This document shows positions 5,776 to 34,702 of a stretch of 64,000 nucleotides of DNA, one piece after another; position 1 is the first letter of the stretch, and each line of letters starts with the position of its first letter. The stretch covers positions 57,143 through 121,142 of the forward strand of contig NZ_BDCE01000017.1 in NCBI RefSeq assembly GCF_001613345.1, in the 5' to 3' direction. The position numbers and the translations under genes were made by a program. The notes under the pieces were generated by a model that saw only the letters and a program-made list of their open reading frames with translations, did no database searches and was not told the origin of the DNA. The stretch is from Nocardia uniformis NBRC 13702. GTDB lineage: Bacteria > Actinomycetota > Actinomycetes > Mycobacteriales > Mycobacteriaceae.

Positions 5776-6042
5776 ATGGCGTTCACCGAATCCGAAGCCA
5801 AGGTGCTCGGCGCGCTGGCTGGATCTACACGCATGGAGGGGCTGACCGTCCGGCAGTTGTGTGAGCGAACCGCGTTGTCGGCCGGGACGGTTCGTACCGC
5901 GCTGCACCAGATGACCTACAACGGATTGACGCTCGGCACCCGGCAGAGTCCGGTGCTGTGGCGGGCATCCGACCGTGGTCGGTCTATCGTCACCAGTCAC
6001 CCCGCACTGCGGGAATTCGTGCCGTCGAAGGCTTCGCCATGA
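5776..6042 (+). CDS. Small winged helix-turn-helix protein
   Basis: The 88-residue product is almost only a winged HTH: SEAKVLGALAGS, then GLTVRQLCERTALSAGTVRT (helices 2-3) and ALHQMTYNGLTLGTRQSP with a final strand VLWRASDRGRSIV. This resembles MarR/DprA-type winged domains. Its stop overlaps the next start by 4 bp (ATGA). With no ligand domain it could be an adaptor or antitoxin-like repressor, but no toxin is recognisable. It is transcribed divergently from the XRE/DUF6879 module. Confidence 0.72.
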   Translation: MAFTESEAKVLGALAGSTRMEGLTVRQLCERTALSAGTVRTALHQMTYNGLTLGTRQSPVLWRASDRGRSIVTSHPALREFVPSKASP

Positions 6043-6437
6043 GACCTCGACCGACCGCCGTAGGGTACATCTGCCGTGAGGTGTCCGGCATCCGCCTGGA
6101 ATGGGATGAATTCAGGATCCGAAGTCTCGCAGCGAGATTCGGATACGACTACGCCAAAACCATCGTGCTCGGCTCAGGAACCTCGGACCGGATCGCGCGG
6201 TTGATCGACAGCGTCCGGCGCACCGATGCCGAAGCCGTATTCGTGCCCAGCGAAACGCATTTCCTCGGTAGCCGTGCCCCGGCTGAGCTGATCCGGATAG
6301 CCGATGTGAACACCGTAGATACCGCGAACACCTATGCCCGGTGGATCGACACCGAAGAGGCCAATGCCGCGACGTGCGGCAACGCCGTGCATCTCCAGGA
6401 TAGAACCGAGCAGTGGAGGGAGGTGCAGAGTGGATGA
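6039..6437 (+). CDS. Resolvase-like (degenerate serine recombinase N-domain) protein
   Basis: The 132-residue protein starts MRPRPTAVGYICREVSGIRL and resembles the catalytic fold of serine recombinases. VGYICREVSG aligns with the GYARVS strand, LAARFGYDYAKTIV with the following helix-strand, and DRIARLIDSVRRTDAEAVFV with the segment that normally reads ALL..AR.GDVDVLVV. Arg-rich active-site motifs (LDRLGRS) and a DNA-binding C terminus are missing, so activity as a recombinase is unlikely. It overlaps the winged-HTH gene by 4 bp and both may work together. The assignment rests on fold-like pattern only. Confidence 0.6.
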   Translation: MRPRPTAVGYICREVSGIRLEWDEFRIRSLAARFGYDYAKTIVLGSGTSDRIARLIDSVRRTDAEAVFVPSETHFLGSRAPAELIRIADVNTVDTANTYARWIDTEEANAATCGNAVHLQDRTEQWREVQSG

Positions 6438-34503: not shown

Positions 34504-34522
34504 TTAGGTTAAGCTAACCAAC
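34504..34522 (+). promoter_or_regulatory. IdeR/DtxR iron box overlapping a leaderless promoter
   Basis: TTAGGTTAAGCTAACCAAC matches the IdeR/DtxR operator consensus TTAGGTTAGGCTAACCTAA at 16 of 19 positions, including both inner half-sites. It ends at the base before the ATG at 34523. TAAGCT inside it (34510-34515) is placed as a -10 element for initiation at the ATG itself. IdeR bound with Fe2+ would cover this promoter, so the downstream gene should be repressed in iron-rich cells. Matches are seen directly; the regulation is inferred. Confidence 0.75.
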
Positions 34523-34702
34523 ATGGGGAAGAAGGTGAAGGCCAAGCACGTCTCGGGTTTGAAACCCAAGAACAAGTGCTGTCGCAAGAAGACGCGATGC
34601 TTCAAATGCCCCGTGGTCATCATGCGGATGAAGAAGTGCGAAGCCGCGGGTGTCTGCGGCAAGGACCTGAAGAAGGCGCTGAAAGTGGCTCGCGCGCGCT
34701 GA
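34523..34702 (+). CDS. 59-residue Cys-rich basic protein, probably iron-regulated
   Basis: The product starts MGKKVKAKHVSGLKPKNKCC, continues RKKTRCFKCPVVIMRMKKCE and ends AAGVCGKDLKKALKVARAR. It has six cysteines, with the first four arranged CC-x5-C-x2-C, about a third Lys/Arg, and no signal peptide or membrane helix, so it could bind a metal or nucleic acid in the cytoplasm. An IdeR box abuts the start codon and the mRNA would be leaderless. Neighbours are typA (divergent) and the pterin dehydratase downstream. I recognise no named family. Confidence 0.8.
   Translation: MGKKVKAKHVSGLKPKNKCCRKKTRCFKCPVVIMRMKKCEAAGVCGKDLKKALKVARAR

What the first reader, a model, noticed from the sequence alone, without database searches (positions are those of the whole stretch)
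34504..34702. Iron box directly in front of an uncharacterised 59-residue Cys-rich protein
The box TTAGGTTAAGCTAACCAAC matches the IdeR/DtxR consensus at 16 of 19 positions, contains a well-placed -10 element and ends at the base before the ATG. The gene encodes a very basic protein with six cysteines (CC-x5-C-x2-C start). An IdeR-controlled leaderless mRNA for a tiny metal-binding-like protein next to typA is not a described iron-regulon member that I know. It could be an iron-sparing or ribosome/RNA-associated factor.
Basis: partly seen in the sequence, partly recalled or inferred. Interest (0 to 1): 0.8.

Follow-up and report, generated by a model that had tools for sequence, protein, structure and literature searches.

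The report
Candidate iron-release partner of ferritin
A tiny cysteine-rich protein found in several families of actinobacteria usually has a sequence matching the iron-control DNA box in front of its gene and, in one of these families, mostly lies next to the gene for the iron-storage protein ferritin, so it is likely a small metal-binding partner that would help empty ferritin when iron runs out.

Summary
In detail: TTAGGTTAAGCTAACCAAC (34504-34522; 16 of 19 iron-box positions) ends at the ATG of a 59-aa, pI 10.5 protein with CC-x5-C-x2-C. Only those four of its six cysteines are conserved.

The box is not chance. All 51 named Nocardia loci score at least 13/19, 46 with a start codon 0-1 nt after the box. 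Boxes of at least 14/19 recur in distant families (25 of 29 f28, 11 of 16 f21 loci; shuffles 0.14-0.25%) at other distances from the start. Mycobacterial relatives lack it.

The main new point lies outside the window. In family f28 (probably Nocardioidaceae) the gene mostly sits beside a BfrB-type ferritin gene: 22 of 29 genomes and 35 of 40 loci in a second sample, divergent or in tandem. This copies the arrangement of bfd, the iron-release ferredoxin of bacterioferritin, but cysteine spacing and profile comparison show no relation to Bfd or FhuF, and no Pfam/NCBIfam family matches significantly.

Best reading: an IdeR-repressed, probably Fe-S-binding ferritin partner that drives iron release in starvation. 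Cofactor, ferritin binding and regulation are untested; rivals are an Fe(II) chaperone and an iron-sparing RNA-binding protein.

The parts
34504..34522 (+). iron box (IdeR/DtxR-type operator, predicted), TTAGGTTAAGCTAACCAAC
   Evidence: 16/19 to TWAGGTWAGSCTWACCTWA; directly before a start in 46 of 51 named Nocardia loci. Binding by IdeR is inferred.
34510..34515 (+). -10-like hexamer TAAGCT inside the box, 7 nt before the ATG (leaderless start inferred)
   Evidence: TANNNT 6-8 nt before a start in 51 of 51 named Nocardia loci; no full sigma-70 promoter by scan
34523..34702 (+). gene of the 59-aa basic CC-x5-C-x2-C protein
   Evidence: 42 homologues, 607 with profile A1, 3027 with wider profile A2; the last two lists show the best 120 only
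34577..34609 (+). codons of the conserved cysteine core C19-C29 (CCRKKTRCFKC)
   Evidence: C19 in 130, C20, C26, C29 in 131 of 131 aligned sequences

Best explanation
The gene at 34523-34702 encodes a 59-residue, strongly basic protein with a conserved CC-x5-C-x2-C motif behind a sequence matching the IdeR/DtxR iron box, and it is likely a ferritin partner, predicted to bind an iron-sulfur cluster and to be made when iron is scarce, that would pass electrons to BfrB-type ferritin so that stored iron is released, the job Bfd does for bacterioferritin. Proposed steps. (1) With iron, IdeR-Fe occupies the box over the -10 and the start, and the gene is silent (box shown; binding and repression inferred). 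(2) Without iron, IdeR leaves and a leaderless mRNA is made (inferred). (3) The four conserved cysteines hold a cluster, most likely [2Fe-2S] (inferred; FhuF shows that CC...CxxC can do this, recalled). (4) The basic protein docks on the acidic ferritin shell and reduces the ferric core (inferred from ferritin adjacency in f28 and opposite charge). In Nocardia the gene and ferritin are unlinked, so there the step rests on orthology.
For: Box: at least 14/19 in 60 of 80 named loci, 25 of 29 f28, 11 of 16 f21, 2 of 3 f35, 1 of 1 f41; dinucleotide shuffles 0-1.2%, random windows of the same loci 0.17% of 2938. Its distance to the start varies: 0-1 nt in 46 of 51 Nocardia loci, 34-56 nt in five Williamsia, 47-52 nt in seven Rhodococcus loci (scores 13-14), 10-24 nt to the first candidate start in the 22 ferritin-linked loci (20 of these 22 sites score at least 14). 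Ferritin adjacent in 22 of the 40 distant loci: 12 co-directional with gaps of -1 to 77 nt, 10 divergent with the ferritin ATG 9-26 nt from the best site. Second sample: 35 of 40 loci (14 co-directional, 21 divergent), box at least 14/19 in 34 of 40. One f28 ferritin and the own-genome ferritin match Mtb BfrB best among PDB sequences (3qd8). Charge, two proteins of each computed: ferritin -12 and -18 per subunit, small protein +19 and +21. Parallel: stand-alone Bfd-type genes beside bacterioferritin-like genes have 18/19 and 16/19 boxes in L225 and L226; PMC12161575 (passages) gives the S. coelicolor bfd beside bfr a putative DmdR1 site; PMC5218490 (passages) says M. tuberculosis bfd lies divergent to bfrA and is IdeR-regulated. 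The own genome has one PF00210 protein, and its only Fer2_BFD match lies in a 1048-aa frame. Outside f1, 4 of 53 genomes with the gene have a stand-alone Bfd against 77 of 305 without (p 0.004, not corrected for phylogeny).
Against: No cofactor, ferritin-binding or expression data. In the f1 (Nocardia included) and f21 loci held no ferritin was found. None of the 12 unnamed g2 (Mycobacterium-like) loci, nor L077 and L079, has a box of 13/19 or better; L007, L008, L067, L072, L076, L083 and L087-L089 lack one too. In f1, 13 of 36 genomes have both Bfd and this gene, so there they are not alternatives. Two f28 genomes have close ferritins without the gene (G311, G319). In the tandem type the box stands before both genes, so ferritin would be repressed together with the small gene when iron is plentiful unless it has a further promoter; that fits storage poorly. 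Profile comparison shows no homology to FhuF_C (probability 1.8%) or Bfd (0.3%). Adjacency could reflect shared regulation rather than contact. BfrB-type ferritin is haem-free (recalled), so the Bfd route through haem could not apply as such.
Confidence: 0.42

Rival explanations
1. It is an iron-sparing effector: a small basic, metal-dependent RNA- or DNA-binding protein made in iron starvation, like the FbpA/B/C proteins of Bacillus (recalled), that changes expression of iron-using genes, ferritin among them.
For: Very basic (pI 10.0-11.4 over 131 sequences), tiny, iron box; two predicted helices after the Cys loop. Explains occurrence in genomes where ferritin is unlinked.
Against: Ferritin adjacency in two different orientations is not expected for a general regulator; no nucleic-acid-binding family matched significantly.
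Confidence: 0.2
2. It is an Fe(II) acceptor or chaperone: its four thiols take ferrous iron as it leaves ferritin and hand it to client enzymes, without supplying electrons.
For: Same ferritin linkage and iron box; the 2016 review PMC4771812 (passages) states that no prokaryotic iron chaperone had been reported and that the acceptor complex drives release.
Against: Four closely spaced cysteines suit a cluster or Zn better than labile Fe(II) (general knowledge).
Confidence: 0.15
3. It is a minimal siderophore reductase, a free-standing counterpart of the FhuF C-terminal [2Fe-2S] segment.
For: CC-x5-C-x2-CP resembles the CC-x10-C-x2-CP of FhuF_C seen in the own genome (L178); iron regulation fits.
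Against: hhalign probability 1.8%; no PF11575 match; the neighbours identified were ferritin (f28) or typA (f1, f3), though not every flanking gene was named.
Confidence: 0.09
4. It is a structural Zn-binding protein of the ribosome or translation machinery, as the typA neighbour suggested.
For: Divergent typA in all 108 loci where typA was found, repeats of one genome included; basic composition.
Against: typA was not found within the fetched f21, f28, f35 or f41 loci although the box persists there; no match at E<=10 in the PDB sequences.
Confidence: 0.07

Closest known systems
Bfd, bacterioferritin-associated ferredoxin (PF04324), with its bfr neighbour
   Same: Small Cys protein, gene beside the iron-storage gene, iron box in front, divergent or tandem order (PMC12161575 and PMC5218490, passages)
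   Different: Cys spacing C-x-C-x(about 31)-C-x2-C against CC-x5-C-x2-C; one Bfd computed is near neutral, against +19 and +21; no profile similarity; partner would be a BfrB-type ferritin
FhuF C-terminal 2Fe-2S segment (PF11575)
   Same: CC...C-x2-CP order of cysteines, iron metabolism
   Different: Loop x10 against x5, part of a larger protein; hhalign probability 1.8%
FbpA/FbpB/FbpC small basic proteins of Bacillus (recalled)
   Same: Tiny, basic, induced by iron limitation
   Different: No comparison was made; no Cys cluster or ferritin linkage known to me
IdeR/DmdR/DtxR regulon of Actinobacteria
   Same: 19-bp box over the promoter; own genome has two strong PF01325 proteins
   Different: This gene is not named as a member in the passages I read; supplementary regulon tables were not readable

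Membership tests
IdeR/DtxR regulon | 19-bp palindromic iron box over or near the promoter, conserved in relatives | tested here: met
   16/19 in the window; conserved in most groups, absent in g2 and some others; a test for matched changes on both arms was negative
IdeR/DtxR regulon | An IdeR-type regulator in the genome | tested here: met
   two strong PF01325 matches in the own genome, 8.3e-21 and 5.8e-19; which is IdeR was not resolved
IdeR/DtxR regulon | IdeR binding and iron-dependent expression | not testable with these tools
   needs gel shift and RNA measurement
Bfd (bacterioferritin-associated ferredoxin) | C-x-C-x(about 31)-C-x2-C ligands / Fer2_BFD domain | tested here: not met
   CC-x5-C-x2-C; no Pfam family at E<=1 for the window protein or any of 21 members of A1, no Fer2_BFD for 7 diverse relatives at E<=10; hhalign 0.3%
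Bfd (bacterioferritin-associated ferredoxin) | gene next to an iron-storage gene | tested here: inconclusive
   true for most f28 members (22/29 genomes; 35/40 loci); not true in the window's genome
Bfd (bacterioferritin-associated ferredoxin) | [2Fe-2S] cluster and iron release from the storage protein | not testable with these tools
   biochemistry needed
FhuF 2Fe-2S C-terminal domain | CC-x10-C-x2-C and PF11575 match | tested here: not met
   loop is x5; no PF11575 match; hhalign 1.8%
Known fold of a solved structure | structural match in the PDB | tested here: inconclusive

The most novel reading that the evidence does not exclude
An ancient actinobacterial family of tiny iron-box-controlled Fe-S proteins is the dedicated iron-release partner of haem-free (BfrB-type) ferritins: an independently evolved counterpart of Bfd, and a core, so far unnamed, member of the actinobacterial iron regulon.
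Probability: 0.35. Interest if true: 0.88.

Novelty: new variant of a known kind. Interest (0 to 1): 0.78.

Why it matters
How haem-free ferritins give back their iron is poorly understood. The 2016 review PMC4771812 (passages) says that release is not as well understood as uptake, that bacterioferritin was the first ferritin with a known partner (Bfd), and that no prokaryotic iron chaperone had been reported. A small protein whose gene is tied by position and a predicted iron box to ferritin makes that question directly testable. It would also add an unnamed member to the iron regulon of bacteria that include pathogens and antibiotic producers.

Tried and rejected

A test whether departures from the consensus on the left arm of the box are matched on the right arm was negative at all nine pairs (104 distinct boxes, lowest p 0.09); I dropped my earlier idea of compensatory change.

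Homology to FhuF_C or Bfd: rejected. The first synteny run used TypA in a wrong frame; one search repeats it with the right frame and replaces its TypA rows.

Co-occurrence with ferritin over 394 genomes (43 both, 31 gene only, 39 ferritin only, 281 neither) is not corrected for kinship. For it and for I dropped 6 of the 80 hits by hand as weak (G040, G050, G061, G069, G296, G370) and kept the also weak G342 because its locus has the gene beside ferritin. All 16 f21 genomes count there as without ferritin at E<=1e-20, but PF00210 proteins were found in 9 of 9 f21 genomes tested. For one search stand-alone Bfd meant E<=1e-10 and an open frame under 330 aa, copied by hand; longer frames, such as G133 (578 aa), were left out.

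Papers: ten searches; in the listings (titles, starts of abstracts) I saw no such gene. Supplements, where regulon tables lie, could not be read. Passages seen: PMC12161575, PMC8464063, PMC5218490, PMC7762939, PMC4771812.

Full report
What is there. The window holds a gene of 59 residues at 34523-34702 (+) directly behind TTAGGTTAAGCTAACCAAC at 34504-34522. The box agrees with the consensus TWAGGTWAGSCTWACCTWA at 16 of 19 positions (the consensus itself is recalled). A TAAGCT hexamer inside it lies 7 nt before the ATG, the spacing of a leaderless start. The protein is very basic (pI 10.48) and has six cysteines, four of them in CC-x5-C-x2-C. In 131 aligned sequences three of these four are present in all and the first in 130; the other two cysteines of the window protein are not conserved. 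No Pfam, NCBIfam or PDB sequence matches significantly. AlphaFold2 gives a confident small fold (pLDDT 86.6, pTM 0.68) with two helices after the cysteine loop and no PDB match of weight.

Is the box real? In the own genome 22 places come within 3 mismatches of the consensus, against 4 for the backwards pattern, and two strong DtxR-family proteins are encoded. Of 302 related stretches found in named genomes, 80 loci were kept (they were found through the motifs KPKKKCC and CPVVIMRM, so the sample leans to close relatives). All 51 Nocardia loci have a box of at least 13/19, 46 of them with a start codon 0-1 nt after the box, and all 51 have TANNNT 6-8 nt before a start; of the 29 other named loci 22 reach 13/19. 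Part of the box score in Nocardia is owed to that -10. The stronger argument comes from relatives in which the box keeps its letters but changes its place: 34-56 nt upstream of the start in Williamsia, 47-52 nt in seven Rhodococcus loci, about 4-9 nt in f21/f41, with a different overlap with the -10 (read), 10-24 nt in the ferritin-linked f28/f35 loci. Counts at 14/19 or better within 150 nt: 60 of 80 named loci, 4 of 20 further unnamed f1 loci, 11 of 16 f21, 25 of 29 f28, 2 of 3 f35, 1 of 1 f41, 1 of 2 f3, 0 of 1 each in f14 and f38; shuffles 0-1.2%, random windows of the same loci 0.17% of 2938. The box is missing in the 12 unnamed g2 loci (Mycobacterium-like) and two named mycobacterial loci (L077, L079), in three g4 loci, in three of eleven named Rhodococcus/Rhodococcoides loci (L008, L067, L076), in Aldersonia (L072), in one Antrihabitans (L007) and in L083.

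What lies beside it. Wherever typA was found it is divergent from the gene: 108 of 175 loci, repeats of one genome included, all in f1 and f3. It was found in no f21, f28, f35 or f41 locus. Reading neighbours of distant loci showed a ferritin gene next door. A tblastn with that ferritin over the loci then held (L003-L192) found it in 22, all among the 40 loci: 21 in f28 and one in f35 (L164). One more f28 genome (L209, G342) shows the pair, so 22 of 29 f28 genomes. Twelve of the 22 loci have the order box - small gene - ferritin with gaps of -1 to 77 nt, ten are divergent with the ferritin ATG 9-26 nt from the best-scoring site (in two of the ten, L148 and L149, that site scores only 10). A second sample was drawn from the same family: 69 of 120 genomes have the gene, 29 of them already used. 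From the 40 others I read 40 loci of 39 genomes, leaving out G448 (weak hit). Ferritin is adjacent in 35 of 40 (21 divergent, 14 tandem) and a box of at least 14/19 is present in 34 of 40. Conversely, two f28 genomes with close ferritins (G311, G319) lack the gene. One f28 ferritin and the own-genome ferritin match M. tuberculosis BfrB best among PDB sequences.

How it most likely works. The arrangement copies that of bfd, the [2Fe-2S] ferredoxin that reduces bacterioferritin. Stand-alone Fer2_BFD genes next to bacterioferritin-like genes carry boxes of 18/19 and 16/19 in L225 and L226. The literature says the same for S. coelicolor (putative DmdR1 site at bfd beside bfr; PMC12161575, passages) and M. 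tuberculosis (bfd divergent from bfrA, IdeR-regulated; PMC5218490, passages). The window's genome has a single PF00210 protein, a BfrB-type ferritin, and I found no stand-alone Bfd in it: its only Fer2_BFD match lies in a 1048-aa frame. The two ferritins computed carry -12 and -18 per subunit, the two small proteins +19 and +21. I therefore commit to an IdeR-repressed, probable Fe-S electron donor that mobilises ferritin iron in starvation. Shown: box, conservation, cysteines, adjacency, charge. Inferred: IdeR control, cluster, docking, electron transfer. For Nocardia itself the ferritin link rests on orthology, since ferritin is on another contig. One point sits badly with the reading: in the tandem type ferritin follows the same box and would be silenced together with the small gene in high iron, unless it has a further promoter.

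What it is not. By defining features it is not a Bfd (wrong cysteine spacing, no Fer2_BFD match, hhalign 0.3%) and not a FhuF fragment (loop x5 instead of x10, hhalign 1.8%). Working like Bfd is a separate claim and stays open. Outside f1 the gene and stand-alone Bfd rarely share a genome (4 of 53 against 77 of 305; p 0.004 without phylogeny), but in f1 13 of 36 genomes have both.

Novelty. In ten full-text searches I saw no paper naming such a protein (listings only); regulon tables in supplements could not be read. It is best called a new variant of a known kind: a ferritin-linked small Cys protein that parallels bfd without detectable sequence relation.

Noticed in passing
L227:2024-2057 (own genome, G000 contig C7): Upstream of the own ferritin gene lie two overlapping degenerate iron-box-like sites (13/19 each; the first, TGAGGCAAGTATTGCCTCA, is nearly a perfect palindrome). 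G031 shows a pair of 14/19 sites before its ferritin (L230). This recalls the tandem boxes of mycobacterial bfrB (recalled).
   Followed up: partly
L234:about 5977-6132 (Nocardioides sp. JS614 plasmid pNOCA01): A copy of the family (CCTSKPKCRRCPIRMLKEG) without a listed gene in the plasmid table lies on a plasmid typed as conjugative, downstream of an alkene/methane monooxygenase cluster, with no site of 12/19 or better nearby.
   Followed up: partly
L323 (G481, second copy): A second family copy in one f28 genome has neither ferritin neighbour nor box, like the plasmid copy.
   Followed up: no
window:34785-35078 (+): The next gene downstream looks like a pterin-4a-carbinolamine dehydratase (from memory; no family search). 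A homologue lies downstream of the small gene in most Nocardia loci.
   Followed up: no
G000 contigs C92, C34, C116, C36, C33: Several of the other iron-box matches in the own genome cluster on a few contigs, possibly siderophore loci; not read.
   Followed up: no
L151:1435-1502 and other g31 loci: In the divergent type the best site lies 9-26 nt from the ferritin ATG, so one operator could serve both genes in opposite senses.
   Followed up: partly
L225:988-1747: A stand-alone Bfd gene followed by a bacterioferritin-like gene lies behind an 18/19 iron box in a genome (G158) that also has the small gene with its own 17/19 box (L104).
   Followed up: partly
L223 and L224 (two g2 genomes): A 15/19 site lies upstream of both a bacterioferritin-like gene and, on the other strand, a gene group that ends in a stand-alone Bfd.
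   Followed up: no
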